Shown here: positions 12,722 through 63,011 of the stretch, one piece after another
How the letters are laid out: every line of letters starts with the position of its first letter
Numbering within the stretch: position 1 is the first letter of the stretch
Notes under the pieces: model-generated
What the model saw: the letters and a program-made list of their open reading frames with translations, nothing else
Told to the model about the DNA's origin: nothing
The model's database searches: none
Assembly (NCBI RefSeq): GCF_012489685.1
Contig: NC_080042.1
Coordinates: 436,501-500,500, forward strand
Length of the DNA: 64,000 bases
Source: Lotus japonicus
Taxonomy: Eukaryota; Streptophyta; Magnoliopsida; Fabales; Fabaceae
Reading direction: 5' to 3'
Program-made: the position numbers and the translations under genes

Positions 12722-13163
12722 CTGTTCATAGCATCATGTAGTAGTTCATATTTCTTTAGAAACTATGGAAATTGGAAGGGGGAAATTGTTTCGCAATGAT
12801 CCTTTCTGTGTTTTTATCTTTCTATGCGTTAGTGTTATCCTCTAGGACAGAGAAAAGAAATTGTGTGTTCAATTGGAACATGAAAGGAGTTTGGAACATG
12901 AACATATGAGGTTTGATTCACTCAACCCCAGTTTTTCTTCAATCACATCTCCAATCACATTTTCGTCTTGTTTTTCGGTTTTAGCACAATTGTAGGTAAA
13001 ATAGCATGTTGTTAGTAACTTGAAACTCTTGGTTCAAAGTTGTGGTGTTATTAGTGTTACGTTTAATTTGGCTTTGGAATCCAATCAAAGAAAATGCAAT
13101 CACCTTTTAAACAGAATAAACCATACTTACTATTTTGGTTTAAATAACTAACAACATTGTGTT
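12722..13163 (+). repeat. Inverted duplication, left arm outer part
   Basis: Nearly identical to the reverse complement of the distal part of 26104-26930. It begins 17 bp after the exonuclease pseudogene's end. Its last 5 bp, GTGTT (13159-13163), are the target duplication of element E1, which interrupts the arm. Confidence 0.9.
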
Positions 13164-14371
13164 TGTAAGATCAAGTTTTGATCTAGTAGTACAACTCTAT
13201 GTTTTGATGATTACAAGTTAACCTTTTGATATGAACAATTGTGGTACTCTAACGTGTTTTTCTGAGTGTGCTATTTACAGGCTCTGACCTCAACTCAATC
13301 TCACACAAATCAGAAGCACTGTGTATAAAGAGCAACCCAAGCAACGCTTTCGCATTCACCATGTTCAGTATGAACAGTGGAAAAGCTTCAGAAGTTCTGA
13401 AGTTATACAAACTCTGATGTGGACTCAGTCACTAGAAGCTCTGAAGATCCAGAAAGTCTGATAACCAAGAAACACTGAAGGCTCAGATATTCTGATGGTG
13501 TAGAAGACTCTGAAGATCCAGAAGCTGAATAGTGGAAACTCTGATGTCCAGAAGCAAGATACTCTGAAGACCATGTTCTTCCCTCTGAGTTCAGAATCAG
13601 AAGAAACAATGGTCAGAGGATCTGGGCTTTCCCTCTGACTCTGATCAACCGGCTTCACAAGTTCCAATATGAAGCATTCCCCTGATCAGAAGTCTCCTAG
13701 GTTTAAAGGTCAAGTCGCTATCCAAGTACAAAAGCAACTGTACCTTCCTGACGACCTACCTAACAGTCTCAGACACAGCAGAAGCTGGATTTTCCAGAAC
13801 TACCCTCCAACGGTAGCATTTCCCATGCAACACTCAACCCTAATCCTTGGAGTATATAAAGAGGCTGAAGACTGAAAGAAACGGCTAGAAGCATTCACAT
13901 ACGCGCAAGACAAACTTAAATTCTTCTAAGCTTTCTTTCATCTGAAATTCATTGAGTTTACTATTAGCTTTTTAGAAGCAATTCTCTTGTAAACAATTCT
14001 TTGATAAACAGTTTGTTTAGTTCCTTTAGGAGATCAAGGTTGATCGGATCCTAGAGAAGACTAAGAGAGTGAATCTTAGTGTGAGCTAAGTCAGTGTAAT
14101 TGTTAGTCACTTGTAGGTTTCAAGTGCAGTTGTAACTCTTACCTGATTAGTGGATTGCCTTCATTCTAAGAAGGAAGAAATCACCTTAACGGGTGGACTG
14201 GAGTAGCTTGAGTGATTTATCAAGTGAACCAGGATAAAATCCTTGTGTGCTTTTCTATCTCTTATCTTTAGCACTTAAGTTCTCGAAAGATTTGTCAAAA
14301 TCTTTAAGGTGGAAGTTTTATACTGAAAACGTTATTCAAACCCCCCCTTTCTACCGTTTTTCATACCTTCA
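13164..14371 (+). repeat. E1 5' LTR
   Basis: Begins TGTAAGATCAAG and ends TACCTTCA (TG...CA). The U3 part (about 13380-13660) is packed with CTCTGAAGATCCAGAAG-like words. Short open frames inside it on either strand are not genes. Confidence 0.95.
13853..13860 (+). promoter_or_regulatory. TATA box of E1 5' LTR
   Basis: TATATAAA in the context CCTTGGAGTATATAAAGAGG. The same position in the 3' LTR is 24764-24771. Transcription would be expected to start about 30 bp downstream. Confidence 0.75.
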
Positions 14372-14373
14372 AT

Positions 14374-14385
14374 TGGTATCAGAGC
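14374..14385 (+). other. E1 primer binding site (tRNA-Met)
   Basis: TGGTATCAGAGC, two bases after the LTR end, is complementary to the 3' end of initiator tRNA-Met, the usual primer of plant Ty1/copia elements. Confidence 0.9.
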
Positions 14386-14443
14386 GCAAGTTCTGATTAC
14401 CACACCTAACAGTGTTCAGTGATCCGGGCCGGTGTGAAAAACA

Positions 14444-16354
14444 ATGGCTGCCACCACCAGTGAAACTCAAAGAGATGGTTACAATGCAAAGCCTCCTATG
14501 TTCGACGGTCAAAGGTTCGAATATTGGAAAGATAGACTGGAAAGTTTCTTTCTGGGTTTCGATGCAGATCTCTGGGATATTATTGTGGATGGCTACGAGC
14601 GTCCAGTTGATGCAGATGGCAAGAAGATCCCAAGGTCAGAGATGACTGCAGATCAAAAGAAGCTGTACTCACAACATCACAAAGCAAGAGCAATTCTTCT
14701 AAGTGCTATTTCCTATGAAGAGTACCTGAAGATTACAGATCGTGAGTTTGCGAAAGGCATTTTCGAATCTCTGAAGATGTCTCATGAAGGAAACAAGAAA
14801 GTCAAAGAGTCAAAGGCATTGTCCTTGATCCAAAAGTATGAATCCTTCATCATGGAGCCAAATGAGTCCATTGAAGAAATGTTCTCCAGATTTCAGTTGC
14901 TTGTAGCTGGCATACGACCTCTCAACAAGAGCTACACAACAAAAGATCATGTCATAAGGGTCATCAGGTGTCTTCCTGAAAGTTGGATGCCTTTAGTGAC
15001 TTCAATAGAGCTCACGAGAGACGTTGAGAATATGAGTTTAGAAGAACTCATCAGCATTTTGAAATGCCATGAGCTGAAGCGCTCAGAGATGCAAGATCTG
15101 AGGAAAAAGTCCATAGCCTTGAAATCTAAATCTGAAAAGGCTAAGGTTGAGAAGTCAAAAGCTCTTCAAACTGAAGAAGAGGAATCTGAAGAAGCATCAG
15201 AAGATTCTGATGAAGATGAGCTGACTCTGATCTCCAAGAGACTCAATCGCATCTGGAAGCACAGGCAGAGCAAATACAAAGGCTCTGGAAAGGCAAAAGG
15301 AAAGTCTGAATCGTCAGGTCAGAAGAAGTCCTCACTTAAGGAAGTCACATGCTTTGAGTGCAAAGAATCAGGGCACTACAAAAGTGACTGTCCAAAATTG
15401 AAGAAGGACAAGAAGCCAAAGAAGCACTTCAAGACAAAGAAGAGTCTGATGGTGACATTTGATGAATCAGAGTCAGAGGATGTTGACTCTGATGGTGAAG
15501 TCCAAGGACTCATGGCTATTGTCAAAGGCAAGGAAGCAGAGTCAAAGGAAGTTGTTGACTCTGACTCAGAATCAGAAGGAAATCCTAACTCAGACGATGA
15601 AAATGAGGTATTCGCTTCTTTCTCTACCTCTGAACTGAAACATGCATTGTCTGATATTATGGATAAGTATAACTCCTTATTGTCTAAGCATAAGAAGCTG
15701 AAAAAGAACTTATCTGCTGTCTCCAAGACTCCTTCTGAACATGAGAAAATTATTTCTGATTTGAAAAATGATAATCATGCCTTGATCAATTCTAACTCTG
15801 TGCTTAAGAACCAGATTGCTAAGTTAGAAGAAATTGTTGCCTGTGATGCCTCTAATTGTAGAAATGAATCTAAGTATGAAAAGTCTTTTCAAAGATTCCT
15901 AGCTAAAAGCGTGGATAGAAGCTTAATGGCTTCAATGATCTATGGCGTAAGCAGAAATGGAATGCATGGCATTGGCTATTCTAAACCAATTAGAAATGAG
16001 CCCTCTGTGTCTAAAGCTAAATCCTTGTATGAATGCTTTGTTCCCTCTGGTACCATATTGCCTGATTCTGTACCTGCTAAAGTTGCTAAAAACCCTCTTA
16101 AAAAGGGATCTTTCTCTATGACTAAATATCATGCAAATATTCCTTTAAAATATCATGTTGAGACACCCAAGGTGATCAGAACCTCTGAGGTAACTAACAA
16201 GAGAGGACCCAGAAAGTGGGTACCTAAGGACAAGATTATCTATGTTGCAGATATCCTTGATAACTCCACTGAAACACCAATCATGGTATCTGGACAGTGG
16301 ATGCTCGCGTCACATGACGGGAGAAAGGCGTATGTTCCGAGAGCTGAAACTTAA
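14444..16354 (+). CDS. gag: E1 Gag polyprotein
   Basis: The 636-residue capsid/nucleocapsid protein builds the retrotransposon particle and packages RNA. Residues 1-60 hold the conserved copia Gag start ([16 protein letters not shown]), followed by a UBN2-type Gag domain to about 240. Residues 240-300 are Glu/Ser/Lys-rich. A CCHC zinc knuckle, [14 protein letters not shown], lies at 303-316. Acidic Ser/Asp-rich stretches and a coiled-coil-like segment (about 425-475) follow. The start ATG is the first after the primer site (GTGAAAAACAATGG). The last 160 bases of the open pol frame region overlap pol, which lies in the +1 frame, so Gag-Pol needs a frameshift or other recoding. The frame is intact and long, as in other Sireviruses. 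Confidence 0.93.
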
Positions 16355-19346
16355 GCCTGGAGGCGAAGTTGGCTTTGGAGGAAATGAAAAGGGTAAAATT
16401 GTTGGTACTGGTACTATTTGTGTAGATAGTAGTCCATGCATTGATAATGTGTTATTGGTAGACGGCTTAACACATAACTTATTGTCTATAAGTCAATTAG
16501 CTGACAAGGGTTATGATGTTATATTCAATCAAAAGTCCTGCCGGGCTGTAAGTCAAATCGATGGCTCTGTTCTGTTTAACAGCAAGAGGAAGAACAACAT
16601 TTATAAGATCAGATTATCTGAGTTGGAGGCTCAGAATGTAAAGTGCCTTCTGTCTATTAATGAAGAGCAGTGGGTATGGCATAGACGGTTAGGGCATGCC
16701 AGTATGAGAAAGATTTCTCAGCTGAGCAAGCTAAACCTTGTCAGGGGCTTACCCAATCTGAAGTTCGCTTCAGACGCTCTTCGTGAAGCATGTCAGAAAG
16801 GCAAATTCACAAAAGTCCCTTTCAAGGCAAAGAATGTTGTCTCAACCTCAAGGCCGTTAGAACTTCTGCATATCGACCTTTTTGGACCAGTGAAAACTGA
16901 GTCTATAGGTGGCAAGAGATATGGGATGGTTATCGTTGATGACTATAGCCGCTGGACATGGGTAAAGTTTCTAACCCGCAAGGATGAGTCTCATGCTGTG
17001 TTCTCTACCTTCATTGCTCAAGTGCAAAACGAGAAGGCTTGTAGGATTGTGCGTGTCAGAAGTGACCATGGTGGAGAGTTTGAGAATGACAAGTTTGAGA
17101 GTCTGTTTGATTCCTATGGAATTGCACATGATTTCTCTTGTCCCAGAACTCCTCAACAAAATGGTGTTGTTGAGAGGAAGAACAGAACTCTTCAGGAGAT
17201 GGCTAGAACCATGCTCCAAGAAACTGGCATGGCTAAGCACTTTTGGGCAGAGGCAGTAAATACAGCATGTTACATTCAGAACAGAATCTCTGTGAGACCA
17301 ATTCTGAATAAGACTCCTTATGAATTGTGGAAGAACATAAAACCCAACATTTCTTATTTTCATCCTTTTGGCGGTGTTTGTTATGTTCTCAATACTAAGG
17401 ATAGATTGCATAAATTTGATGCTAAGTCTTCTAAGTGTCTATTACTCGGTTACTCTGAGAGATCTAAAGGTTTTAGATTTTATAATACTGATGCTAAGAC
17501 TATTGAAGAATCTATTCATGTTAGATTTGACGATAAGCTTGACTCTGACCAGTCAAAGCTAGTTGAAAAGTTTGCAGATTTAAGCATTAATGTTTCTGAC
17601 AAAGGCAAAGCTCCAGAGGAAGTTGAGCCAGAGGAAGATGAACCAGAGGAAGAAGCTGGTCCCTCTAACTCACAAACTCTGAAGAAGAGCAGAATCACTG
17701 CAGCTCACCCTAAGGAATTGATTTTGGGCAACAAAGACGAACCAGTCAGAACCAGATCTGCCTTCAGACCCTCTGAAGAGACCTTGCTCAGTCTGAAAGG
17801 ATTGGTGTCCTTAATTGAACCCAAGTCCATAGATGAAGCTCTTCAGGACAAGGATTGGATTCTGGCCATGGAAGAAGAATTGAATCAATTCTCCAAGAAC
17901 GATGTTTGGAGCTTAGTGAAGAAGCCTGAGAATGTCCATGTTATTGGAACGAAATGGGTATTCAGAAACAAGCTGAATGAGAAAGGAGATGTAGTCAGAA
18001 ACAAGGCAAGGCTAGTTGCTCAAGGCTACAGCCAGCAGGAAGGAATAGACTACACTGAAACATTTGCTCCAGTAGCAAGACTGGAGGCAATCAGACTGTT
18101 GATCTCTTTCTCAGTAAATCACAACATAGTTCTACATCAGATGGACGTGAAGAGTGCCTTCCTAAATGGTTATATCTCAGAGGAAGTCTATGTTCATCAA
18201 CCCCCAGGTTTTGAAGATGAGAAGAAACCAGACCATGTGTTCAAATTGAAGAAATCACTCTACGGTCTGAAGCAAGCTCCCAGAGCATGGTATGAGAGAC
18301 TTAGCTCATTCCTTCTGGAGAATGAGTTTGTAAGGGGTAAAGTAGATACAACTCTTTTTTGCAAGACTTATAAAGATGATATCTTAATTGTGCAAATTTA
18401 TGTTGATGATATTATATTTGGTTCTGCTAATCAATCTCTATGCAAAGAATTTTCTGAGATGATGCAGGCTGAATTTGAGATGAGTATGATGGGAGAATTA
18501 AAGTACTTTCTGGGAATACAAGTTGATCAAACACCAGAAGGAACATATATCCATCAGAGCAAGTACACTAAAGAACTTCTGAAGAAGTTCAATATGCTGG
18601 AATCTACAGTGGCCAAGACTCCAATGCATCCTACATGCATTCTGGAGAAAGAAGATAAAAGTGGTAAAGTATGTCAGAAGCTCTATCGTGGCATGATAGG
18701 TTCACTTCTATACTTAACTGCATCTAGGCCAGACATACTATTTAGTGTTCATTTATGTGCTCGTTTCCAATCAGATCCAAGGGAAACCCACTTAACTGCT
18801 GTTAAGAGGATCCTAAGGTATCTGAAAGGCACCACTAACCTTGGCTTGATGTATAAGAAAACATCAGAGTATAAGCTTTCAGGTTACTGTGATGCTGATT
18901 ATGCTGGAGATAGAACAGAGAGAAAAAGTACTTCTGGAAATTGTCAATTTCTGGGAAGCAATCTAGTCTCATGGGCAAGCAAGAGGCAATCAACCATTGC
19001 ACTATCAACTGCAGAGGCAGAATATATCTCAGCAGCAATATGCAGCACTCAGATGCTCTGGATGAAACATCAGCTGGAGGATTATCAGATCCTTGAGAGC
19101 AATATCCCAATCTATTGTGATAACACTGCTGCAATCTCATTGAGTAAGAATCCTATCTTGCATTCAAGGGCAAAGCACATTGAGGTAAAGTATCACTTTA
19201 TTAGAGATTATGTACAGAAGGGCGTACTTCTTCTGAAGTTTGTTGATACTGACCATCAATGGGCAGATATCTTTACAAAGCCCTTAGCAGAGGATAGATT
19301 TAATTTTATTCTGAAAAATCTAAACATGGACTTTTGTCCAGAGTGA
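16242..19346 (+). CDS. pol: E1 Pol polyprotein (PR-INT-RT-RNase H)
   Basis: Encodes the enzymes of reverse transcription and integration. Visible from the first Met of this frame: protease D-S-G at 18-20; integrase zinc region starting with H-R-R-L-G-H at 147; integrase D212, D275, E311 (35-residue D-E spacing); reverse transcriptase from about 550 with YVDD at 720-723; RNase H D884, E925, D960 and a DIFTKPL ending. The listed Met is only the first in an open frame that begins at 16194; expression is probably by shift from gag. Odd residues: R181 replaces the first Cys of the integrase C-x2-C pair that E2 and E3 keep (ALCEACQKGK), and Gly replaces Cys in PFGCVC. Integrase function is therefore doubtful although the frame is open. 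Confidence 0.92.
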
Positions 19347-19590
19347 AGATGGATCAGAACCTCTGACTATGATACTTCTTGATCAGAAGATGTCTAGTCC
19401 AGAAGGTAACTCAATCAGAGTGTGTGTACCCACTGGTACTGACTCTGAAGCTGAGACAGCAACACGTGTGTCAACATTTCTGATGCATAGTTCCTTGTGC
19501 CCGTGTGACAGTCTGTTATGATTGCGTGTAGATGTGCTTCTCTCCTGTGTGTGATTTGTGTATTTACTGTTACTATCTATCTTTAATTTT

Positions 19591-19787
19591 CAACCGTTGA
19601 TCTTAAAGTGCTTTTTGAATCAACAACGGTTATTTGTCAAAACCCACTATACACACACGATCTCTTTCACTTCCGGTTTTTACTCTCTCTCTCTGCTTTT
19701 TGAAACCGCTTATCCTCGATTTCTCTCTCGATCTCTCTTCATCCTTCAACCTTCATCTTCTACCTCAAACCTTCAACCGCTTCAAAA
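19591..19787 (+). promoter_or_regulatory. Candidate leader/promoter of E1 third ORF
   Basis: Contains AACCGTTGA (from 19592) and its near-inverse CAACGGTT (19624-19631), then CCCACTATACACACAC (19643-19658), then a CT-rich leader up to the ATG at 19788. The same order is present in E2, E3 and E4. The AACCGTT/AACGGTT pair resembles MYB sites and the CTATACA stretch could be a weak TATA box. Function is inferred only. Confidence 0.45.
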
Positions 19788-22679
19788 ATGGTGAGTCAAA
19801 CCAGAAGAACTACTGCAGATGCAACCCAGTTCCCTCACATGGTAGTTGGTCTAGCAACGGGTCAAAGGGGCCCTGAGAATCCGACACCAGATCAAGGTCA
19901 AGCTCAAGAGCAGATTATTCCAATTGCAGAACGGGGCTGTGCCGTTCACTGCGTATATGTTCCTGAGGAACTTCAAGTCCTGGCAGAATGGAGATTCGAC
20001 CTCGACAACCTGGCTACAAATGGGTATGATCTTCGTCCTGAAGTCCAAGTTCAAGGTTGGGGAAATTACTTCAACAGACTTCGAGGACCGGTGTATGATA
20101 AACTGATCAAGGAATTCTGGAAGCACGCCGACTGCGATGATACTCAGGTGGTATCTCACATTCTTGGAAGAAAGATCATCATCACAGAGAAGTCTTTCGT
20201 GAACTTGCTGGGTGCAGACACTGCTTTTGGGTATCGTTTCCAACTCACGGAATCGAAGCTGAAACCCAGCACCAAGGATACAATCAACCAGGCCCTGTAC
20301 ACCAATTACAAACCGGGCAAGACGAATTACAAGGTGATGGACCTTCATCCTAAGCTCAGAATCTGGCACAAGATCCTGCTCCACTGCATAAACCAGAGAC
20401 CAAAGGGCAGTTCCCCAGACTACATCAACTTCAACCAGAAGGTGATGTTGTTCTTCATCCAAGACCAGAAGAAGATCTGCCTTCCCTACTTCCTGTTCTC
20501 CTACTTGAAGGAATGTATCCGGAAGTCTCGTACCACTGCCTCCATCAAGTCTGCGATCAAGTATATTCCCTTCGGGAGACTTTTGTCTGATCTCTTCATT
20601 GAGAGTGGCCTCGTTCAAGATCTGATAAATGCTGGATGCACAGAGGATCTGACCACCATTGTCAGTGATGTCTTCACGGCAAACTCTCTAAAGAAGATGG
20701 GCCTAATCAAGAAGAAGATTGCTCCTGCCCATGAAGACACATCTTCTGAGATCAGAAGTAGAAGGATGCCTCTGAATGACTACCCTCTGTGGACTCAGGC
20801 AGACAATCCTGACGCCATTAGGTGCTATGTTGAAGACCTAAGGGCTCAAGGATTCGAAATTGATCTCGATGACTTCTTCAGCAGACTGCCGCCAGGTCCA
20901 GAGTTTCCTTCTCCTCCCAAGAAGAAAGTTCAGAGGAAGATGATCCTAGAAGAATCTTCTGAGGAATCAGATGTCCCTCTGATCAAAAAGAAGAAGGCTG
21001 GTCAACTCAAGAGAAAGCAAGATGAAACCAGCAAGCCTGATGATGGTGATGATGGTGATAATGAGGATGGTCCTCCTAAGAAGAAGAAGAAGCAGGTCAG
21101 AATCGTGGTGAAGCCTACTCGGGTGGAACCAGCTGCTGAAGTGGTCAGAAGGACTGAACCTCCTGCCAGAGTGACAAGATCATCAGCACTTACAAGTAAG
21201 TCTGCAATTGCTTCTGATGATGATTTGAATTTATTTGATGCACTCCCCATATCTGCCATGCTCAAACACTCTTCAAATCCCCTTACTCCTATTCCTGAAT
21301 CCCAACCAGCTGCACAAACCACCTCTCCACCACATTCCCCAAGGTCTTCGTTCTTTCAACCTTCCCCTACTGAAGCACCTCTCTGGAATTTGCTCCAGAA
21401 CCAACCCTCTAGGTCAGAAGAACCAACCTCTCCCATTACCATCCCGTACAACCCATTAACTTCTGAACCCATCATTCATGCACAACCAGAGCCTACCCAA
21501 ACAGAACCTGGACCCAGAACCTCTGATCACTCTGTCCCAAGAGCATCAGAACGTCTGGCTCCCAGAACTACTGATACAGACTCTTCCACAGCCTATACAC
21601 CTGTATCCTTCCCAACCAATGTTGCTGACTCTTCTCCCTCCAATAACTCTGAATCCATTAGAAAATTCATGGAGGTCAGAAAAGAAAAGGTGTCTACCTT
21701 AGAAGAGTATTATCTCACTTGTCCAAGCCCTAGGAGATATCCTGGCCCTAGACCTGAACGTCTAGTTGACCCAGATGAACCTATCTTGGCCAATCCTTTA
21801 CATGAGGCAGACCCTTTGTCTCAACAAGCTCACCCTGCCCCTGACCAACAAGAGCCTATTCAACCAGAACCTGAACCAAAACAATCTGTGTCTAACCAAT
21901 CCTCGGTTAGATCACCTCATCCTCTGGTTGAAACTTCAGAACCTCACCTTGGAACCTCTGAACCCAATGCTCAAATGTTTAACATTGGCTCTCCACAAGG
22001 TGCCTCTGAAGCCCACAGCAGCAATCACCCAGCCTCTCCTGAAACCAACCTCTCCATAATTCCTTATACTCACCTCCGACCCACATCTCTCTCTGAGTGC
22101 ATCAATATTTTCTATCATGAAGCCTCTTTGAGGCTACGCAATGTGCACGGTCAGACTGACCTCAGTGAGAATGCTGAACGTGTGGCTGATGAGTGGAACA
22201 CTCTGGGCACTTGGCTGGTGGCTCAAGTTCCAATTATGATGCAGCTCCTGCATGCAGAGGGAAGTCAGAGGATTGAGGCTGCAAAGCAAAGGTTTGCTAG
22301 AAGGGTGGCTCTTCATGAACAAGAACAGAGACATAAGCTTCTTGAAGCTATTGAAGAAGCCAAGAGAAAGAAAGCTCAAGCAGAAGAAGCTGCACGTCAA
22401 GCAGCAGCTCAAGCTGAACAAGCCAGATTAGAGGCAGAACGACTTGAAGCTGAGGCTGAAGCTCTTAGATGCCAAGCACTTGCACCAGTAGTGTTTACTC
22501 CTGCTGCTTCTGCTTCCATTCCAGATCCTCAAGCTGCTCAGAATGTTCCTTCCGGTTCTACTCAGTCAAGCTCATCCAGACTCGACATCATGGAACAGCG
22601 TCTTGACACTCATGAATCCATGCTAATTGAAATGAAGCACATGATGATGGAACTTCTGCGTCGAACTGATAAACCATAG
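19788..22679 (+). CDS. E1 third ORF ('envelope-like' / putative plant transposon protein)
   Basis: The 963-residue protein lies between pol and the 3' LTR, the place of the env-like gene of Sireviruses. Residues 1 to about 300 form a conserved domain (EELQVLAEWRFDL, YFNRLRGPVYD, EFWKHADCDDTQVVS, LRIWHKILLHCINQRPKG), found in plants as 'putative plant transposon protein'. About 370-440 is Lys-rich with NLS-like clusters (PPKKKKKQ near 430), next to acidic Asp/Glu/Ser runs. 450-770 is Pro/Ser/Thr-rich and probably disordered. About 845-905 is Ala/Glu/Gln-rich coiled coil, and the C-terminus is LLRRTDKP. I see no signal peptide or transmembrane segment, so an envelope role is not supported by this sequence. 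It is followed about 200 bp downstream by the convergent antisense ORF. Confidence 0.85.
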   Translation: MVSQTRRTTADATQFPHMVVGLATGQRGPENPTPDQGQAQEQIIPIAERGCAVHCVYVPEELQVLAEWRFDLDNLATNGYDLRPEVQVQGWGNYFNRLRGPVYDKLIKEFWKHADCDDTQVVSHILGRKIIITEKSFVNLLGADTAFGYRFQLTESKLKPSTKDTINQALYTNYKPGKTNYKVMDLHPKLRIWHKILLHCINQRPKGSSPDYINFNQKVMLFFIQDQKKICLPYFLFSYLKECIRKSRTTASIKSAIKYIPFGRLLSDLFIESGLVQDLINAGCTEDLTTIVSDVFTANSLKKMGLIKKKIAPAHEDTSSEIRSRRMPLNDYPLWTQADNPDAIRCYVEDLRAQGFEIDLDDFFSRLPPGPEFPSPPKKKVQRKMILEESSEESDVPLIKKKKAGQLKRKQDETSKPDDGDDGDNEDGPPKKKKKQVRIVVKPTRVEPAAEVVRRTEPPARVTRSSALTSKSAIASDDDLNLFDALPISAMLKHSSNPLTPIPESQPAAQTTSPPHSPRSSFFQPSPTEAPLWNLLQNQPSRSEEPTSPITIPYNPLTSEPIIHAQPEPTQTEPGPRTSDHSVPRASERLAPRTTDTDSSTAYTPVSFPTNVADSSPSNNSESIRKFMEVRKEKVSTLEEYYLTCPSPRRYPGPRPERLVDPDEPILANPLHEADPLSQQAHPAPDQQEPIQPEPEPKQSVSNQSSVRSPHPLVETSEPHLGTSEPNAQMFNIGSPQGASEAHSSNHPASPETNLSIIPYTHLRPTSLSECINIFYHEASLRLRNVHGQTDLSENAERVADEWNTLGTWLVAQVPIMMQLLHAEGSQRIEAAKQRFARRVALHEQEQRHKLLEAIEEAKRKKAQAEEAARQAAAQAEQARLEAERLEAEAEALRCQALAPVVFTPAASASIPDPQAAQNVPSGSTQSSSSRLDIMEQRLDTHESMLIEMKHMMMELLRRTDKP

Positions 22680-22879
22680 TTTTAGGATCTCTTCGTTTTT
22701 CTTTTTCTTTAACGTTGTTTTATTTTTGTTAAACTCTGTTTCTTTTTATTTAATTATTCTACTTTGTTCGTGTGTGATTATCTATGCATATCTATATATT
22801 TTTTTTGTCACATGTGTTTGCAAAATTCTTTTTATTCATAATCTCTTTATGTTTACATCATACATTCTTTCCCTAAAGT

Positions 22880-23272
22880 CTAGAATGGAGGATCCCTCCT
22901 CATTCTTCTGCACTCCTGGCGCTGCTCTGACCTATCCTTCTCCAGACGCTCCAGTGCATGCTGGATGTTGTTGAGCCTGTCGTTTAGCTCATCCCTCTCC
23001 AGAATCTCTTCTGCAGTCTTGAGCTTCTCTTCCAAACTCTCTTTTTCTTCCAGCAGCTTGAGTTCAAGCCGGCTGAGTTCTTGCACCTCCTCAACGAAGG
23101 CAAGAAATTCCCTCAGGTCTCTCTTCAACTCTGGACGCAGGTCCTCCTCCAGCAGTGTCCGTGTTAGCTCCGAGATGGTCGTTGTACCCTCTGGATGTCT
23201 GATGTTAAGGAACAAGTCCTCCTCGAAGGCCTTCTTCCTCAGCTCTTCTAGTGCTACGATGTATGATGCCAT
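22880..23272 (-). CDS. E1 antisense ORF, 130-residue coiled-coil protein
   Basis: Open frame on the strand opposite to gag-pol, between the third ORF and the 3' LTR. The N-terminus MAS-x-I...LRKKAF-x-EDLF-x-N-x-RHPE is followed by a long Leu/Glu/Lys-rich helical region (about 40-115) and the end RRMRRDPPF. E4 has the same 130-codon frame. By eye the two differ by six synonymous and five amino-acid-changing substitutions and no indel, fewer replacements than neutral drift predicts. E2 carries a diverged 129-codon version with the same ends. TATATAAA lies 55 bp upstream of the ATG. I recognise no domain family and the function is unknown. It could bind the third ORF product or regulate the element. 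Confidence 0.7.
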   Translation of the reverse strand: MASYIVALEELRKKAFEEDLFLNIRHPEGTTTISELTRTLLEEDLRPELKRDLREFLAFVEEVQELSRLELKLLEEKESLEEKLKTAEEILERDELNDRLNNIQHALERLEKDRSEQRQECRRMRRDPPF

Positions 23273-23326
23273 TTTTTTCCTTACTGAAAATTGTTCGAGG
23301 TGTGAAGCTTACCTTCTCTCCAACGC

Positions 23327-23334
23327 TTTATATA
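23327..23334 (-). promoter_or_regulatory. TATA-like box of E1 antisense ORF
   Basis: On the minus strand the sequence reads GCCTATATAAAGCG, about 55 bp before the ATG at 23272. Equivalent boxes stand at a similar distance in E4 (62816-62823) and E2 (28877-28884). Confidence 0.55.
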
Positions 23335-23522
23335 GGCTTCACTTTCTCTCTGAAAGTTAATGCTCCTACAGTTTCTCGAGGTTAAGTTCTTGGTAACTGA
23401 CCCTTCTCTTTACTCCCTTGACCGGTGGTAAACGTTCTTCTCTTGCATTAACTCTTCTATTTATTTCGCCTAACTCTGATTCTTGCATCGTTTTCATTTC
23501 CTTTAAACTTAGACCTTCTCTA

Positions 23523-24073
23523 AGGGGGAGTACCTTGTACTTCAAGCTAAGTTTTTCACACCCCAAGCTTTTTGCTTATGCCAAAAAGGGGGAGTAAACC
23601 CAGTTTTTGATGTGTAAGATGTGTTAGTGTGATTTATTTTTCTTTTGGAGAATTTAAGAGTTCCACCTTCATGACCATAGATGTGTCACTGGGCAAATAC
23701 AAGGAATACATTTCACTTCTTCTGAAGTGATTCTAAGTTGACTCTGATACCCAAGACTCTGATACCTTGTCCGTGACTCTGATTACTTATGCGCTCTGAT
23801 TACTCGATTTTCATCTATGTCATAAGTTTTTCACTCTGAACTCTTATATCATTCAGCTCAGAATCTAGACTTTACTAACGTTTTCATCAAGTATTAGATT
23901 CAGGGGGAGCTAAGCTCAGAATCAAGCAGTGACTTGAATTCAGAATGAGCAAGATAAACTATTCACATCAGGATAAGTCCTATTCTATATCTCTAAACTC
24001 TGAGTGAATTCAGTTTAATGTTTAAGAGTTGTTCATCAAAATCTTAGTTTTGTCATCATCAAAAAGGGGGAGA
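23523..24073 (+). other. E1 polypurine tracts (four copies)
   Basis: AGGGGGAG or AAAAAGGGGGAG occurs at 23523-23530, 23583-23594, 23902-23909 and 24061-24073. The last, directly before the 3' LTR, is the expected plus-strand primer. Repeated tracts are characteristic of Sireviruses. Confidence 0.75.
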
Positions 24074-24074
24074 T

Positions 24075-25282
24075 TGTAAGATCAAGTTTTGATCTAGTAG
24101 TACAACTCTATGTTTTGATGATTACAAGTTAACCTTTTGATATGAACAATTGTGGTACTCTAACGTGTTTTTCTGAGTGTGCTATTTACAGGCTCTGACC
24201 TCAACTCAATCTCACACAAATCAGAAGCACTGTGTATAAAGAGCAACCCAAGCAACGCTTTCGCATTCACCATGTTCAGTATGAACAGTGGAAAAGCTTC
24301 AGAAGTTCTGAAGTTATACAAACTCTGATGTGGACTCAGTCACTAGAAGCTCTGAAGATCCAGAAAGTCTGATAACCAAGAAACACTGAAGGCTCAGATA
24401 TTCTGATGGTGTAGAAGACTCTGAAGATCCAGAAGCTGAATAGTGGAAACTCTGATGTCCAGAAGCAAGATACTCTGAAGACCATGTTCTTCCCTCTAAG
24501 TTCAGAATCAGAAGAAACAATGGTCAGAGGATCTGGGCTTTCCCTCTGACTCTGATCAACCGGCTTCACAAGTTCCAATATGAAGCATTCCCCTGATCAG
24601 AAGTCTCCTAGGTTTAAAGGTCAAGTCGCTATCCAAGTACAAAAGCAACTGTACCTTCCTGACGACCTACCTAACAGTCTCAGACACAGCAGAAGCTGGA
24701 TTTTCCAGAACTGCCCTCCAACGGTAGCATTTCCCATGCAACGCTCAACCCTAATCCTTGGAGTATATAAAGAGGCTGAAGACTGAAAGAAACGGCTAGA
24801 AGCATTCACATACGCGCAAGACAAACTTAAATTCTTCTAAGCTTTCTTTCATCTGAAATTCATTGAGTTTACTATTAGCTTTTTAGAAGCAATTCTCTTG
24901 TAAACAATTCTTTGATAAACAGTTTGTTTAGTTCCTTTAGGAGATCAAGGTTGATCGGATCCTAGAGAAGACTAAGAGAGTGAATCTTAGTGTGAGCTAA
25001 GTCAGTGTAATTGTTAGTCACTTGTAGGTTTGAAGTGCAGTTGTAACTCTTACCTGATTAGTGGATTGCCTTCATTCTAAGAAGGAAGAAATCACCTTAA
25101 CGGGTGGACTGGAGTAGCTTGAGTGATTTATCAAGTGAACCAGGATAAAATCCTTGTGTGCTTTTCTATCTCTTATCTTTAGCACTTAAGTTCTCGAAAG
25201 ATTTGTCAAAATCTTTAAGGTGGAAGTCTTATACTGAAAACGTTATTCAAACCCCCCCTTTCTACCGTTTTTCATACCTTCA
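24075..25282 (+). repeat. E1 3' LTR
   Basis: 1,208 bp, the same length as the 5' LTR, with about five substitutions by eye. Ends TACCTTCA, followed by the target duplication GTGTT (25283-25287). Confidence 0.95.
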
Positions 25283-25643
25283 GTGTTTACGTAAGGTGTT
25301 TATGTATACAACTAGACACGCCCTAAACACTAGTGTTCATATGCTTATATTATGATATCATTTGAATTTGAATGCAGTTTAGGTAACTAAATTGCACAAC
25401 AAGTAAACTATATTTCCAGCAAGCTTTTCTTAAATTCATCACTAGTCAAAAGGAGACATAAATGCAATGTTGGTGGGCATTGAGCAAATGAAGTATTGAT
25501 TGTCTGCTTTCACATGGTTAATTACATACAAAGTGTTGGTTACCGGTTGCCCTATATGGTGACCAAAAAGTCAACAATACCAAGTTCCAAGAATTAAATC
25601 AAGAGTCCATAGAGCGCTATGCCTATTATGTTGATTAGTCAAC
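25283..25643 (+). repeat. Inverted duplication, left arm inner part
   Basis: Continues the left arm after the E1 insertion. It matches the reverse complement of the proximal part of 26104-26930, apart from an insertion of about 28 bp in the right arm. Confidence 0.9.
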
Positions 25644-26103: not shown

Positions 26104-26930
26104 GTTGACTAATCAAAATAATAGGCATAGCGCTCTATGGACTCTTGATTTGATTCTTGGAACTTGGTATTGTTGACTTTTTCTTTGTTTGTTAATTATA
26201 TCAGGCGTGGTGGTCACCATATAGGGCAACCGGTAACCAATACTTTGTATGTAATTAACCATGTAAAAGCAGACAATCAATACTTCATTTGCTCAATGCC
26301 CACCAACATTGCATTTATGTCTCCTTTTGACTAGTGATGAATTTAAGAAAAGCTTGCTGGAAATATAGTTTACTTGTTGTGCAATTTAGTTACCTAAACT
26401 GCATTCAAATTCAAATGATATCATAATATAAGCATATGAACACTAGTGTTTAGGGCGTGTCTAGTTGTATACATAAACACCTTACGCAAACACAATGTTG
26501 GTGGTTATTTAAACCAAAATAGTAAGTATGGTTTATTCTGTTTAAAAGGTGATTGCATTTGCTTTGATGGGATTCCAAAGCCAAATTAAACGTAACACTA
26601 ATAACACCACAACTTTGAACCAAGAGTTTCAAGTTACTAACAACATGATATTTTACCTACAATTGTGCTAAAACCGAAAAACAAGACGAAAATGTGATTG
26701 GAGATGTGATTGAAGAAAAACTGGGGTTGAGTGAATCAAACCTCATATGTTCTTGTTCCAAACTCCTTTCATGTTCCAATTGAACACACAATTTCTTTTC
26801 TCTGTCCTACAGGATAACACTAACGCATAGAAAGATAAAAACACAGAAAGGATCATTGCGAAACAATTTCCCCCTTCCAATTTCCATAGTTTCTAAAGAA
26901 ATATGAACTACAACATGATGCTATGAACAG
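26104..26930 (-). repeat. Inverted duplication, right arm
   Basis: Reverse complement of 12722-13163 joined to 25288-25643. It contains a single uninterrupted GTGTT at the place where E1 is inserted in the left arm, so it keeps the empty-site form. It is cut by the LTR of E2 at 26931. Confidence 0.9.
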
Positions 26931-28876: not shown

Positions 28877-28884
28877 TATAAGTA
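28877..28884 (+). promoter_or_regulatory. TATA-like box of E2 antisense ORF
   Basis: TATAAGTA in the context AGCTTATAAGTAGC, about 60 bp before the ATG at 28938. It is the positional counterpart of the boxes in E1 and E4. Confidence 0.45.
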
Positions 28885-28937: not shown

Positions 28938-29327
28938 ATGGCATCGTTCATAGCATGCATCGAGCAGTTGAGGAAGAAAGCCTTCGATGAAGATCTCTTC
29001 ATCAATGTTCGCCATCCAGAAGAACCGAGCGTCTATAGCTTGACAAACCGGCTAATAGGCATGAGTCTGAGTCCAGAAATGGACAACATCCACATAAGCT
29101 TCCTTAGAGTCATGGAAGAAATGCAAATTTGCTTCCAGAAGGAGCAGGAGTTGTATGAGGAAATCAGAGCAACAGAGGCGGCACTGGAGACGGTGGCGGA
29201 GGGTCCTGAGAGGCAGGAGCTGCGCCAGAGCTTAGTCCTCTTAGAGCATAGGCAGCATCGTCTGGAGCTTGAGAAGGCAGCGATGCGTAGGCAATGTAGA
29301 GAGTTGAGGAAAAATCCTCCCTTTTAA
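28938..29327 (+). CDS. E2 antisense ORF, diverged 129-residue copy
   Basis: Antisense relative to E2's gag-pol. Length is within one codon of the E1 and E4 versions. About 20 of the first 28 residues match E1 (LRKKAF, EDLF, RHPE kept), and the C-terminus RKNPPF parallels RRDPPF. The middle is strongly diverged but remains Glu/Leu/Gln-rich and helical. It is open although gag, pol and the third ORF of the same element carry stops or frameshifts. The flanking sequence toward the LTR resembles E1 far more closely than the ORF itself does. Function unknown. Confidence 0.65.
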   Translation: MASFIACIEQLRKKAFDEDLFINVRHPEEPSVYSLTNRLIGMSLSPEMDNIHISFLRVMEEMQICFQKEQELYEEIRATEAALETVAEGPERQELRQSLVLLEHRQHRLELEKAAMRRQCRELRKNPPF

Positions 29328-29542
29328 TTGTAGCAATGCATTGTATGAAGTTTCTTATTAATGAATAAAAAGGTTTGTTTGTTAGTTAATGTGTATGAGT
29401 GAAAATAAATTTGATGATGAACAAATATTATGCAACACATAATGAAAACGATAACTGAAGAAAGGAAAATAGAAACAAAATGGTTCAAGAGAAAACAAAT
29501 AATATAGATAAAGAAATATAGAAGAAAAGAGAGTTCCTAAAG

Positions 29543-30190
29543 CTAGGGTTTAGGTGTCCGCCGTAGAAGTTCCGTGCACATTTCTTTCAAACTCTGAAGG
29601 AGAACTTCATGAGAATCAAGCCTTTTTTCAATGATGTCAATCCTTGAGTCTGACTGAGGTGGAGCAGACGTTGTAGCTTGATCAAAGTGAGGAACTTGAG
29701 CAGACTGTGAAGCAGCATTTGTGAAAAGCACTGGTGCAAGAGCTTGACTTCTGAGAGCATCAGCTTCAGCCTGTAGCCTTTCAGCTTCTTTCAGAGCTTC
29801 TAACTTAGCGTTTTCAATTCGTTCAGCTTCAAGACGAGCAGCTTCTTCTACTTGTTCTTTCTTCTTTCTTGCTTCTTCAATAGCTTCAAATAACTCAACC
29901 CTTAGCTGTTGTTCACATAGAGCTAATCTTCTGTTGAAACGCTACCTAGCAGCTTCAATCCTCTGATCCCTTTCAGCTGTGAGATGACTCATCATAGTCG
30001 GAACTTGAGCAATTAGCCAATCACACAGATGATCCTTGCACATTGCGAACCATCAATGATTCCCATTCTTCAGCAACAGAGTCAGGGTTCTCAGAGAGGT
30101 CAGAGTGACCTTGCACATTGCGAACCATCAATGATGCTTCATGATTAAACACACTAATGCACTCAAGAAGGGAGTTTGGCTTGAGATATG
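29543..30190 (-). pseudogene. E2 third ORF, C-terminal part
   Basis: Minus-strand continuation of the third ORF after the G1 insertion. It ends with residues like ELLRRTPKP (E1: ELLRRTDKP), preceded by the Ala/Glu-rich coiled-coil region. Stops interrupt it, for example a TAG in the E-A-A-R-x-R-F segment near 29945. A duplicated 27-bp block (30036-30062 and 30107-30133) disturbs the reading. It is not a separate gene. Confidence 0.75.
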
Positions 30191-31478
30191 TGATGACCCG
30201 GGATTTAAGACTATTTTCCTAGTTTATTTGCATGCTTTTTAATATATTATTTAGATCATTTTAGTCATTTTAGGCCACCTTAGGATTATTTCATGTATTT
30301 TATTATTATTTATGTGTTTTTAGTATTTTTCTATAATTTTTATGATTTTTATTATATTTTTATTAGGATTTTCGGATTAATAAAGGGGAGCTAATATGTT
30401 ACTGATGGTCCATGGAAATTACAGTGCACAAGCGGAGATGGACGGCTGCTGTTCCGCTCGTTGACACATGGCTCAATCATGCTGAAGGTCCACCATAAGG
30501 CCGTAGTTCGTGACACAATAGATTTCAACCTTAAAGCTAGGACCAATTGCTTGCTGACACATGGCATAAGTAAAATATAGTTTGTTTTAGCTAGTCTGAT
30601 GCACAAGTCACGTGATTTGAAAACAAAAAGAGCAAAAGGATATATAACAGAGGTTGCTGTAGCGTTAGGAAGGATATATATATTAGGGTACAGGCTACAG
30701 CAACAGATATAGGGGACGGGAGAAAAAGCAGAAACGGCGTGAATAGAGAAGGAGGGAGACACGACGGTCAAAGGTTCTTCTTCTCCTTCCTTGTAATTTT
30801 TATGGCCATGTTAGGCTAACTCCCTCTTTTTAGCACTTGAGGTGTGAATCCTTTTTATTTTTATGTCTTAATATTTCAGTACTTTGTATGACTATTGAGT
30901 TTTCAATCTATGTATTCGTTTCAGTTAATTTGTGCTTGAATCGATGCGAGCTTTTTACTAATTCTTATAGGAACGAAAGTTATATTAAGAATTAAGGAAC
31001 CACGGGAGCGAATTTATTAGACCTTCCCTACTGCTTAGGAATAAGAGTAGAATCTAATAGTGGTGGCTAGTATATGAAATTTTAATCTTCAATTCAAGGG
31101 TCTAGGTGCTCGTAATACAGACGTAGTAATTGAATTGAAAGTCTTGCTTAGCTATTAATTTAGAAAGTAAGAATATAGGCTAAATCACCATAGAGAGGAC
31201 TCTCAATTTCATACAAACACTGTTTTGTTTAAGACATAAATTAAATTGGTGAAACTATACTCAGGTGCTATCTTTCTCATATAAATTAAAAAATCTTTTT
31301 AATTGCTTTAGTTTATTTCTGCGAAATTGAACAACTGAATCAAACCACCCCAATCGTATTTACTTTTATTCTCTAAATCATAGAATTAGTTTGAATCAAC
31401 AATTGAACACATTCCCTTGGGTACGATATCTTTTATATTACTTCGGGCAAATTTGTATACTTGCAAATTGGCTTATCA
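30191..31478 (+). repeat. G1 5' LTR
   Basis: Begins TGATGACCCGGGATTTAAG and ends TTGGCTTATCA. It has 9 bp (AGTCATTTT) near 30260 that are absent from the 3' LTR. The 126-codon minus-strand frame inside both LTRs is not a gene. Confidence 0.93.
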
Positions 31479-31484
31479 AGTTTT

Positions 31485-31502
31485 TGGCGCCGTTGCCGGG
31501 GA
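31485..31502 (+). other. G1 primer binding site (tRNA-Asp)
   Basis: TGGCGCCGTTGCCGGGGA is complementary to the 3' end of plant tRNA-Asp including CCA. This primer is typical of Athila/Tat elements. Confidence 0.9.
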
Positions 31503-31634
31503 TTGTCTTTATTTTATTGATTTAAGCTAGTTTTTATTTTTTAGAGCTTTGCTTTTAATTTATTTTATTCAAAAAAAATAAAAAAATATTTGTTTGCTTT
31601 TAAATTGGTGCTCTTAATTTGTTTGCTCAAGTGT

Positions 31635-34220
31635 ATGCGAGGTACGGTAGATCCAAATTCTCTACTTTTTGATCCTGAGATCGAGAAGACTGCTCGCAAG
31701 AACAGATCCCAACGAAGAAGAGAAAAAGCAAGAGAAAAGGTTGCAAGTACCATGGCTACAGAGTCACCAGCTGAGATGGAGGCACGACTTCGTGCTCAAT
31801 TAAATGCAGAATTTAATGAGCGTATGGAAGCTGAACTACAGGCTCGTTTGACTCAGAATCAGGAGAATGAAGCTGCATTGGAGGCCGGGAGATCACTGAA
31901 AGACCTTAATGCACCTCAAATCAGTTTCAGATTTGAGGGAAGCATTGTCAAACCAACAGGCCTACCAAGAGGTTTCAAAATTCCACCGCACATAATGCAT
32001 TCAATAGCACAGAATCAATTCGGAGGAAGCGTACTGGAGGATCCATATGCTCACATGGATCGTTTCACTATGCAGGTGTCCCCTGTGGTATCTGATCAAG
32101 TAAGTCTGGATGATGTCAGACTAACACTCTTCCCCTACTCTTTGAGGGATGCTGCTGAAGAGTGGTTGAGGGCTCAACCTCGACAGAGCATAACTTCTTA
32201 GGATGATATAGCCAAGAAGTTCTCAGAAAAGTTTTTCCCTAGCTCTCGCATGAGGCAACTGAAGCATGACATCAATACTTTCTATCAAATGGAATCTGAG
32301 AATCTTTATGATGTATGGGAAAGGTTTAAGGGACTTCTTAGAAAGTGTCCAGGCCACAATTTGAAAGAATCAACACAGGTAGATAGGTTCTATGCAGCTC
32401 TCAAAAGTAATACAAGAGTCATGTTGGACCTTGCAGGCAAGAATGGAGCTTTTGATCATCTGTCAACTAAGGATTCTCTAGAAATCATCAACAATCTGGC
32501 TGAAAGGGAAGCTCACTCTAATAATGATAGACGCAACAGGGGCAGTGTCAATGAAATTCAGGCATATGATAATGTAATGGCGTCTAGCAAGGCACTTTCA
32601 GATAAAATGGATGCCATGTTCAAGAGGATGGATGATCGCAAGATGAACACTGAGAAGGAGGCAATGGATGAAGAGATCAAGTATCTGAGAAGCTCTAGGC
32701 ATGATCCTCCTACTGGTACATACAACCCCAGTTGGGCGAATCATCCTAGTTTGTCTTACAGAAATCAAGATGGATATGAACAACAAGGAAATTCTAAGCA
32801 GTACTCCAATCAACAAAGGAGCCAATATCAGGATGAGAGGCAACAACCTCAACAGGATCAGAACTCTGGGAGGAGGAGCTTGGAAGACATTGTGGGGCAA
32901 CTATCTCAAACCACTGAATCTTTCATGACTGAAACCAGAAATACCAACAAAAATCATGAGGCTTCCCTCAGGAATTTGGAGAATCAAATGGGTCAGATTG
33001 CAAAACAGCTTTCAGAAAGGAGTCCAGGTAAGTTACCCTCTGACACTATTGAGAATCAAGCTAATATTTCTGCTATAACTACTAGGAGTGGTAAAATTTT
33101 GAAAGATGCTGAAAGAAAGATAGTAGAAAAGAGGGGTGAGGAAGTAGAAAAATCTAAGGAAGAGAGTAGGGAAGTGAGTGCGAAGAAAACAAATAATGAT
33201 AAATTCAAAGAAAAGAAAGATAAAGAGAGAACCACTTTCCCCAATGACAAGAGTTGTTGCAAGGTACCTTTTCCAAAAGCTTTAGTGAAAAAGAATTTAG
33301 AAAAGCAATTTTCTAAATTTCTTGAGGTTTTCAAAAAGTTACAAATAAATATTCCATTTTCTGAAGCTTTGGAACAGATGCCTGCATATTCTAAATTCAT
33401 GAAAGAAATACTCTCTAGGAAAATAAAGCTGAGTGAGGTAAATGAGACCATAATGATGAGTGAGGAGTGTAGTGCTATCTTGCAGAGGAAACTTTCACAA
33501 AAAATGAAAGATCCTGGAAGCTTCACACTTCCTGTGGAAATTGAAGGTCTTCCTACTGCTAAGGCTCTATGTGATTTAGGAGCAAGCATTAATTTGATGC
33601 CTCTCACAATGTTTAAGAGGTTGGGTTTAGGAGAGGTCACTCCCACCATGATCAACCTACAACTAGCTGACAGGTCACTCAAAACTCCTTACGGGATTGT
33701 AGAGGATGTTCTAGTTAAGGTAGATAAATTTATTTTTCTTGTGGATTTTGTCATATTAGATATGGAAGAAGATGCTAGAATACCTCTCATCCTAGGAAGA
33801 CCCTTTCTAGCAACAGGTAATGCAAAAATCAATGTAAGGAAGGGAATTCTCTCTTTGAAAGTAGGAGAAGAGAAAGTGAGGTTTAATGTCTTTGAGTCAT
33901 TGAAACATAAGAATGATGAGAGTGTCTTTAGTGTTGAGGTAGTGGATGAGTTTGGTTGTGAGGAATTTAAGAGAATTTCTATGAAAGACTCTTTGGAAGC
34001 TGTGATCATGGAAGGACTTGAGCCTGTTGTCCTCCCTAAATGTGATACTGGAACGATAATTGAAACTGTGAATCAACTGGAGTTAGTCTCATCTCTCTCG
34101 CTTAAGAATGTTTGCAGAGGAGAATTAAAAAGAGATGAGGAAACTCCGATTAAATCTGAAAAATTGGAACTGAAACCTCTTCCTCCTACCCTCAAATATG
34201 CTTATCTTGAGGAGGGAGAG
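31635..34220 (+). pseudogene. gag: G1 Gag-protease
   Basis: One frame interrupted by a single TAG at 32199-32201, where related Gags have Trp before D-E/D-x-A-x-K-F. I chose the start at 31635 (MRGTVDPN); an upstream Met at 31590 is in frame. Athila/Tat Gag blocks are clear: LTLFPYSLRDAAEEWLR, then FFPSSRMRQLKHDI and WERFKGLLRKCPGH. After a Gln/Asn-rich linker comes the aspartic protease with DLGASINLMP (the Athila variant of D-S/T-G) near 33573 and ILGRPFLAT near 33790. The frame is cut at 34221, where the solo LTR supplies a TGA. Confidence 0.82.
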
Positions 34221-62166: not shown

Positions 62167-62364
62167 TTTTAGGATCTCTTCATTTTTCTTTCTTTTTCTT
62201 TAACGTTGTTTTATTTAAACTCTGTTTCTTTTTATTTACTTATTCTACTTTGTTCGTTTGTGATTATCCCTGCATATCTATATATATTTGTGTCACATAT
62301 GTTTGCAAAAATCTTTTTATTCATCATATTTTTATGTTTACATCATACATTCTTTCCCTAAAAT

Positions 62365-62757
62365 CTAGAATGGAGGATCCCTCCTCATTCTTCTGCACTC
62401 CTGGCGCTGCTCTGACCTATCCTTCTCCAGACGCTCCAGTACATGCTGGATGTTGCTGAGCCTGTCCTTTAGCTCATCCCTCTCCAGAATCTCTTCTGCA
62501 GTCTTGAGCTTCTCTTCCAAACTTTCTTTTTCTTCCAGCAGCTTGAGTTCAAGCCGGCTGAGTTCTTGCACCTCCTCAACGAAGGCAAGAAATTCCCTCA
62601 GGTCTCTCTCCAACTCTGGACGCAGGTCCTCTTCCAGCAGTGTCCGTGTCAGCTCCGCGATGGTCGTTGTACCCTCTGGATGCCTGATGTTCAGGAACAA
62701 GTCCTCCTCAAAGGCCTTCTTCCTCAGCTCTTCTAGTGCTACGATGTATGATGCCAT
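62365..62757 (-). CDS. E4 antisense ORF, 130-residue coiled-coil protein
   Basis: Same length and ends as the E1 copy, with five amino-acid changes and six silent changes by eye. It is preceded by TATATAAA on the minus strand (62816-62823), about 60 bp before the ATG. It converges on the third ORF, which ends 198 bp away. Function unknown; see the E1 entry for the domain description. Confidence 0.7.
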   Translation of the reverse strand: MASYIVALEELRKKAFEEDLFLNIRHPEGTTTIAELTRTLLEEDLRPELERDLREFLAFVEEVQELSRLELKLLEEKESLEEKLKTAEEILERDELKDRLSNIQHVLERLEKDRSEQRQECRRMRRDPPF

Positions 62758-62815
62758 TTTTTTTTTCCTTACTGCAAATTGTTTGAGGTGTGAAGCTTAC
62801 CTTTCTCTCCAACGC

Positions 62816-62823
62816 TTTATATA
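62816..62823 (-). promoter_or_regulatory. TATA-like box of E4 antisense ORF
   Basis: Minus strand GCCTATATAAAGCG, identical to E1 and at a similar distance from the ATG. Confidence 0.55.
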
Positions 62824-63011
62824 GGCTTCACTTTCTCTCTGAAAGTTAATGCTCCTACGGTTTCTCGAGGTTAAGTTCTTGGTAACTGACCCTTCTCTTT
62901 ACTCACTTGACCGGTGGTAAACGTTCTTCTCTTGCATTAACTCTTCTATTTATTTCGCCTAACTCTGATTCTTGCATCGTTTTCACTTCCTTTAAACTTA
63001 GACCTTCTCTA

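What the first reader, a model, noticed from the sequence alone, without database searches (positions are those of the whole stretch)
22880..23334. Antisense fourth gene in SIRE-type elements
E1, E4 and E2 each carry a 129-130-codon frame on the strand opposite to gag-pol, between the third ORF and the 3' LTR. Start, stop and length are conserved. E1 and E4 differ by six silent and five replacement changes with no indel (counted by eye), against roughly 1:3 expected without selection. E2 is strongly diverged in the middle but keeps both protein ends. Each copy has a TATA-like box 50-60 bp before the ATG. Together this suggests a selected, independently transcribed antisense gene of unknown function. 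Antisense ORFs are known in some gypsy elements; I do not know of this one being described for the SIRE lineage.
Basis: partly seen in the sequence, partly recalled or inferred. Interest (0 to 1): 0.88.

Follow-up and report, generated by a model that had tools for sequence, protein, structure and literature searches.

The report
Antisense accessory gene in SIRE retrotransposons
Three copies of a SIRE-type retrotransposon carry, on the strand opposite to their other genes, the same small open reading frame, whose protein sequence is more conserved than chance allows; it is likely a real fourth gene, predicted to make a helical coiled-coil accessory protein, in an arrangement described before in another retrotransposon superfamily.

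Summary
The three element 3' ends seen in the window each have a 129-130-codon antisense frame between the third ORF and the polypurine tracts (E1 22880-23272, E4 62365-62757, E2 28938-29327). E1 and E2 share 55 of 129 residues; randomisations reach 47 at most. Five further full-length proteins of 129-130 aa were found, 41-93% identical to the window copies, starting MA and ending PPF. Each window copy has a TATA-like box 60-66 bp before the ATG, no ATG between, and AATAAA starting 37-44 nt after the stop. The 6:5 silent:replacement count is exact but weak (p 0.02-0.07) and does not tell the strands apart: a sense shadow frame gives 7:4. E1-E2 and the homologs favour the antisense frame. AlphaFold predicts a two-helix hairpin; no Pfam or PDB relative was found. 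Best reading: a selected protein gene with its own predicted minus-strand promoter, likely an accessory regulator working like maize Grande gene23. Transcription and function are untested. Antisense extra ORFs are known in plant Ty3/gypsy elements; seven topic searches of an open-access library (listings, eight papers opened in passages or sections) showed none for SIRE. One large survey required 250 codons and would miss this one.

The parts
22880..23272 (-). antisense ORF of E1, 130 codons
   Evidence: conserved with E2/E4 and five database homologs
62365..62757 (-). antisense ORF of E4, 130 codons
   Evidence: 96% identical to E1
28938..29327 (+). antisense ORF of E2, 129 codons (E2 lies on the minus strand)
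   Evidence: 43% identical to E1
23327..23334 (-). predicted TATA box of E1, TATATAAA, 62-55 bp before the ATG; no ATG between
   Evidence: transcription untested
62816..62823 (-). predicted TATA box of E4
28877..28882 (+). predicted TATA-like box of E2, TATAAG
22831..22836 (-). AATAAA, starting 44 nt after the stop in E1: predicted polyadenylation signal
   Evidence: lies in a 12-nt stretch identical in E1, E4 and E2
62316..62321 (-). AATAAA, starting 44 nt after the stop in E4
29364..29369 (+). AATAAA, starting 37 nt after the stop in E2
22965..23360 (+). sense shadow frame of E1, 131 codons, Ser-rich; judged a by-product of the antisense gene
   Evidence: open also in E4 (62450-62824), but an internal stop in E2 and lower protein conservation
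19788..22679 (+). ORF3 of E1 (963 codons), sense extra ORF; sub-threshold match to PF20167 Transposase_32
14444..16354 (+). gag ORF of E1 (Retrotran_gag_2, zinc knuckle)
16242..19346 (+). pol ORF of E1 (integrase before RVT_2: copia order)
13164..14371 (+). 5' LTR of E1, 5 of 1208 sites differ from the 3' LTR; GTGTT on both sides of the element
24075..25282 (+). 3' LTR of E1
23523..24072 (+). polypurine-tract cluster of E1: AGGGGGAG at 23523, 23587, 23902 and 24065, the last starting 10 bp before the 3' LTR

Best explanation
The frame is likely a genuine fourth gene of these SIRE-type elements: its protein sequence is conserved across copies, it would be transcribed from its own predicted minus-strand promoter next to the polypurine tracts, and it is predicted to make a 129-130-residue coiled-coil hairpin protein that likely acts as an accessory regulator of the element. 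Shown by calls: the frame in the 3 element 3' ends seen, kept ends, protein-level constraint, five outside homologs of the same length. Predicted: TATA box about 60 bp before the first ATG, poly(A) signal just after the stop, helices at 47-86 and 90-126. Inferred: a short unspliced minus-strand mRNA; a protein that pairs with itself or a partner through the coiled coil and uses its conserved N-terminal (RHP) and C-terminal (PPF) ends for binding; a trans-acting role in regulation, as PMC7264820 suggests for antisense proteins of gypsy elements. The gene appears to travel with ORF3: between E1 and E2 the ORF3 plus antisense-gene block is strongly diverged while pol on one side and the polypurine tracts and LTR on the other are not, as if this block were exchanged between element lineages.
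For: E1-E2: 55 of 129 residues identical, BLOSUM sum 268; null with the same local density of changes: mean 35, maximum 46, BLOSUM maximum 159, 0 of 5000 reaching either, 25 of 5000 free of stops; repeat with 2000 trials: maxima 47 and 163, 0 of 2000. The five other frames reach at most 48 identical and BLOSUM 125. Eight full-length family members (3 window, 5 database) of 129-130 aa, 39 invariant columns, all ending PPF. NG86 dN/dS 0.23 (E1-E4) and 0.25 (E1-E2, dS saturated), in the range of ORF3 0.20/0.17, gag 0.28 (E1-E4) and pol 0.33/0.08-0.18. TATA-like box, no upstream ATG and AATAAA in all three copies. GC 0.49-0.52 inside, 0.24-0.38 in the flanks. AlphaFold mean pLDDT 80.2 for E1 and 73.1 for E2, same helix layout. 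Diverged block about 19700-23400 against 0.85-0.96 identity in the PPT/LTR part.
Against: No transcript or protein was seen, and no such data could be looked up. E1-E4 statistics are borderline and not strand-specific. YN00 gives a weaker ratio for E1-E4, 0.023/0.037. The sense shadow frame is open in E1 and E4 and also exceeds its null a little between E1 and E2 (identity reached in 3, BLOSUM in 31 of 2000). The coding DNA of the five database homologs was not available, so no dN/dS on them, and it is not known that they lie in SIRE elements (contigs 561-1102 bp). That collection holds predicted proteins, so broken copies are under-represented; two of the seven hits are partial (81 and 84 aa). 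No fold or family match points to a function. AATAAA is common in this AT-rich stretch: 5 in the E1 linker minus strand. The two structure models use the same eight sequences and are not independent; the N-terminal third is of low confidence in both.
Confidence: 0.72

Rival explanations
1. The selected product is the antisense RNA, which pairs with the sense transcript and tunes silencing; the frame is incidental.
For: Antisense RNAs without coding capacity are reported for other retrotransposons (PMC7264820, parts 1 and 2 of 3 of its text read); the TATA-like box would serve this too.
Against: It does not explain conservation at protein level while the DNA drops to 47-66% identity within the gene, nor eight proteins of nearly the same length and the same ends.
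Confidence: 0.1
2. A structural or particle-associated coiled-coil protein that binds Gag, ORF3 protein or nucleic acid in virus-like particles rather than regulating expression.
For: Predicted coiled-coil hairpin and basic C-terminal end (sequence); a plant-virus row of the viral structure library is ORF4 of Dioscorea bacilliform RT virus 2, but at E 0.45.
Against: That match is not significant and may reflect only a common helix arrangement; no interaction tested.
Confidence: 0.2
3. A fragment of a host gene captured by the element and now drifting.
For: Capture of host genes by plant LTR elements is documented (PMC7264820).
Against: dN/dS in the range of the element's own genes; the 3 element ends seen keep the frame with its ends; no Pfam family at gathering score. 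A host-genome search could not be run.
Confidence: 0.06
4. The real gene is the overlapping 131-codon sense frame at 22965-23360 and the antisense frame is its shadow.
For: E1-E4 silent:replacement is 7:4 in that frame. It is open in E1 and E4 (the only stop in the stretch is at its very edge, codon 1), and its E1-E2 identity is reached in only 3 of 2000 null trials.
Against: In E2 it has an internal stop, at codon 98 of 129, and no ATG at the E1 position; BLOSUM sum 125 (31 of 2000 nulls reach it) against 268 (none); Ser-rich low complexity; the database homologs match the antisense frame. No search was made with the sense frame.
Confidence: 0.04

Closest known systems
Grande gene23 and related aORF-3R genes of plant Ty3/gypsy elements (Grande, RIRE2, Retand, PvRetro13)
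   Same: Antisense ORF between pol and 3' LTR, kept in most copies; for Grande an own promoter and a nuclear protein are reported (PMC7264820, parts 1 and 2 of 3 read).
   Different: Those elements are Ty3/gypsy; the bean ORF2 proteins are 211-939 aa in Table 2 of PMC4093653 (passages), this one 130. PF04195 (TRP28), the domain typical of Retand (PMC11963269, passages), was not among the Pfam matches here.
SIRE / Sirevirus lineage extra ORFs (eORF-3'F, env-like)
   Same: ORF3 of the same elements is a sense extra ORF in that place; 74% of SIRE elements in one survey have one (PMC6317226, passages).
   Different: This ORF is antisense, small and separate. That survey counted only extra ORFs of 250 or more codons, so it could not have reported it.
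HBZ of HTLV-1
   Same: Antisense gene at the 3' end of a retroelement with a nuclear regulatory product (PMC11963269, passages); its bZIP coiled coil is recalled.
   Different: The TATA-like box here lies 735-742 bp outside the LTR, while the HTLV antisense promoter is in the 3' LTR (PMC7264820); no bZIP family among the Pfam matches.

Membership tests
Sirevirus (SIRE) lineage of Ty1/copia | copia order, integrase before reverse transcriptase | tested here: met
   rve 203-304 before RVT_2 553-796 in the E1 pol ORF
Sirevirus (SIRE) lineage of Ty1/copia | multiple AGGGGGAG polypurine tracts, the last 10 bp upstream of the 3' LTR | tested here: met
   four copies in E1, the last starting at 24065 with the LTR at 24075; criterion from PMC2829016 passages
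Sirevirus (SIRE) lineage of Ty1/copia | placement in an RT/INT tree | not tested
   no plant reference set was at hand
SIRE1 proper (soybean) | linker of 0.52 kb in SIRE1-1 | tested here: not met
   E1 has 1394 bp from ORF3 stop to LTR alone; SIRE1-1 value from PMC2829016 Table 2. So these are SIRE-type, not shown to be SIRE1
aORF-3R class of antisense extra ORFs | antisense ORF between pol and 3' LTR, conserved in most copies | tested here: met
   3 of the 3 element ends seen, coding constraint
aORF-3R class of antisense extra ORFs | antisense transcription from an own promoter (Grande) | not testable with these tools
   only sequence signals were seen
Retand TRP28 proteins | PF04195 domain | tested here: not met
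   PF04195 not among Pfam matches up to E 1 for P0001 and P0003, the two proteins scanned
HBZ-like antisense genes | promoter inside the 3' LTR | tested here: inconclusive
   TATA-like box lies outside the LTR, but transcript starts are unknown

The most novel reading that the evidence does not exclude
SIRE elements carry a fourth, independently transcribed antisense gene encoding a new coiled-coil protein family, the first such gene in the copia superfamily, moving with ORF3 as an exchangeable accessory module between the conserved pol and the polypurine-tract/LTR cassette.
Probability: 0.55. Interest if true: 0.75.

Novelty: new variant of a known kind. Interest (0 to 1): 0.6.

Why it matters
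Sireviruses can be very abundant (about 21% of the maize genome, abstract of PMC3599292 in the listing), and the antisense accessory genes in the papers read here belong to Ty3/gypsy elements. The same arrangement with a different protein in a copia lineage would suggest that antisense accessory genes arose more than once at the same place in plant LTR elements, and gives a small, well-bounded protein on which to test what they do. It also shows that a survey with a 250-codon cut-off leaves out short genes.

Full report
What is there. The window holds several nested copies of one LTR element family. E1 spans 13164-25282 with LTRs that differ at 5 of 1208 sites and GTGTT on both sides, so it is a young insertion. 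E2 lies on the minus strand and is interrupted by another element at about 30189-38084. E3 starts at about 45576 and appears interrupted in its ORF3 by E4, which runs off the window. The pol ORF of E1 has integrase before reverse transcriptase, and gag has the copia-type Pfam domain. Four AGGGGGAG tracts precede the 3' LTR, the last starting 10 bp before it, which is the Sirevirus signature in PMC2829016 (passages).

The antisense frame. The three element 3' ends that the window shows carry it: 130, 130 and 129 codons. E3's 3' end is outside the window. In E1 the frame lies 200 bp after the ORF3 stop and 250 bp before the first polypurine tract. Its GC is 0.514, 0.519 and 0.492 in E1, E4 and E2, against 0.24-0.38 in the flanks; ORF3 of E1 has 0.473.

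Is it coding, and on which strand? Its p-value is only 0.019-0.073, and the sense frame whose third positions coincide with those of the antisense frame gives 7:4, so this pair cannot name the strand; that sense frame is also open in E1 and E4. E1-E2 can tell more. They share 55 of 129 residues; with the same number of changes in each 30-nt block placed at random, 5000 trials gave a mean of 35 and a maximum of 46, and only 25 had no stop. The BLOSUM sum is 268, against at most 125 in the five other frames. Tested in the same way, the antisense frame beats 2000 of 2000 nulls on both measures, the sense shadow frame is reached by 3 (identity) and 31 (BLOSUM) of 2000, and it has an internal stop in E2. 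NG86 dN/dS is 0.23 and 0.25, in the range of gag, pol and ORF3, with the caution that dS is saturated for E1-E2 and that YN00 gave about 0.6 for E1-E4.

Relatives. Three protein searches listed 4 of 186, 7 of 7997 (a capped candidate list) and 7 of 2101 scored candidates (limits E 0.001, 1 and 1): in all seven distinct proteins, five full-length (129-130 aa) and two partial (84 and 81 aa, left out of the eight-sequence alignments). With the three window proteins, the eight full-length ones have 39 invariant columns, denser at the two ends: 12 of 28 in columns 1-28 and 6 of 13 in 118-130, against 4 of 18, 9 of 40 and 8 of 31 between. P0009 and P0008 bridge the E1 and E2 types (60-64% and 53-56% to the E1 type, 47% and 60% to E2). 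Whether these proteins lie in SIRE elements is unknown.

Signals. On the minus strand each copy has a TATA-like box at -60 to -66, no ATG between it and the start, and AATAAA starting 44, 44 and 37 nt after the stop. The AATAAA sits in a 12-nt stretch identical in the three copies, in an otherwise diverged region. These are predictions; AATAAA occurs five times in the E1 linker minus strand.

Protein. AlphaFold gives two long helices, 47-86 and 90-126, read here as an antiparallel hairpin, mean pLDDT 80.2, with the first 30 residues at 57-65; the E2 protein gives the same layout at 73.1. Heptad a/d positions are more hydrophobic than in shuffled helices, shuffles reaching the observed value in 0.1-10.4% of trials across the 16 helices, not corrected for their relatedness. 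No fold match is specific.

Module. Identity between E1 and E2 is 0.57-0.83 in windows from 19700 to 22880, 0.47-0.66 within the antisense gene, 0.56-0.78 over the next 200 bp and 0.85-0.96 from 23481 on; two pol pieces (392 and 318 codons) are 0.93-0.94 identical at nucleotide level. ORF3 and the antisense gene thus form a block with a history of its own, as recombination between lineages would leave. This is an inference from one pair.

Literature. [quoted passage not shown] the words SIRE and Sirevirus do not occur in it. PMC6317226 (passages) reports sense extra ORFs in 74% of SIRE elements, with a 250-codon minimum. PMC4093653 (passages) found antisense ORF2 in 15 gypsy families of bean and sense env-like ORFs in two copia families. 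The topic searches listed no title or abstract start that describes an antisense ORF of a SIRE element; eight papers were opened, in passages or sections, and the rest of the listed papers were not. Subscription journals are mostly missing, so this is not proof of novelty.

Verdict. A selected, short, antisense protein gene is the best reading. Its promoter is predicted and its role inferred: an accessory regulator working like Grande gene23. It is a new variant of a known kind: same arrangement, another superfamily, another protein.

Noticed in passing
16971-17411(-), 49387-49827(-), 56510-56950(-), 42713-43153(+): A 146-codon antisense frame inside pol in all four copies; changes fall mainly in the pol third position, so it is a shadow of pol conservation.
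   Followed up: yes
16242-16354, 48658-48770, 56303-56439: gag and pol frames overlap out of frame in E1, E3 and E4, by 113, 113 and 137 bp (from the coordinates), as a conserved frameshift between gag and pol would leave.
   Followed up: no
19347-19787: The pol-to-ORF3 gap of E1 has 10 stops in the pol frame, so ORF3 cannot be reached by the stop-codon suppression that I recall for SIRE1; how ORF3 is expressed is open.
   Followed up: partly
12722-13165, 25283-25643 and 26104-26930: The sequence on both sides of E1 matches, in inverted orientation, the stretch beside the E2 3' LTR (98% over 444 bp, 91% over 390 bp): a roughly 0.8-kb inverted repeat into one arm of which E1 seems to have inserted.
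   Followed up: no
19788-22679: ORF3 of E1 has a sub-threshold match (40.9 bits, cut-off 45) to PF20167 Transposase_32, a putative plant transposon protein.
   Followed up: no
P0004, P0007: Two proteins filed under Bradyrhizobium sp. TM233 on contigs of 561 and 483 bp belong to this protein family; likely plant DNA in a bacterial assembly.
   Followed up: partly
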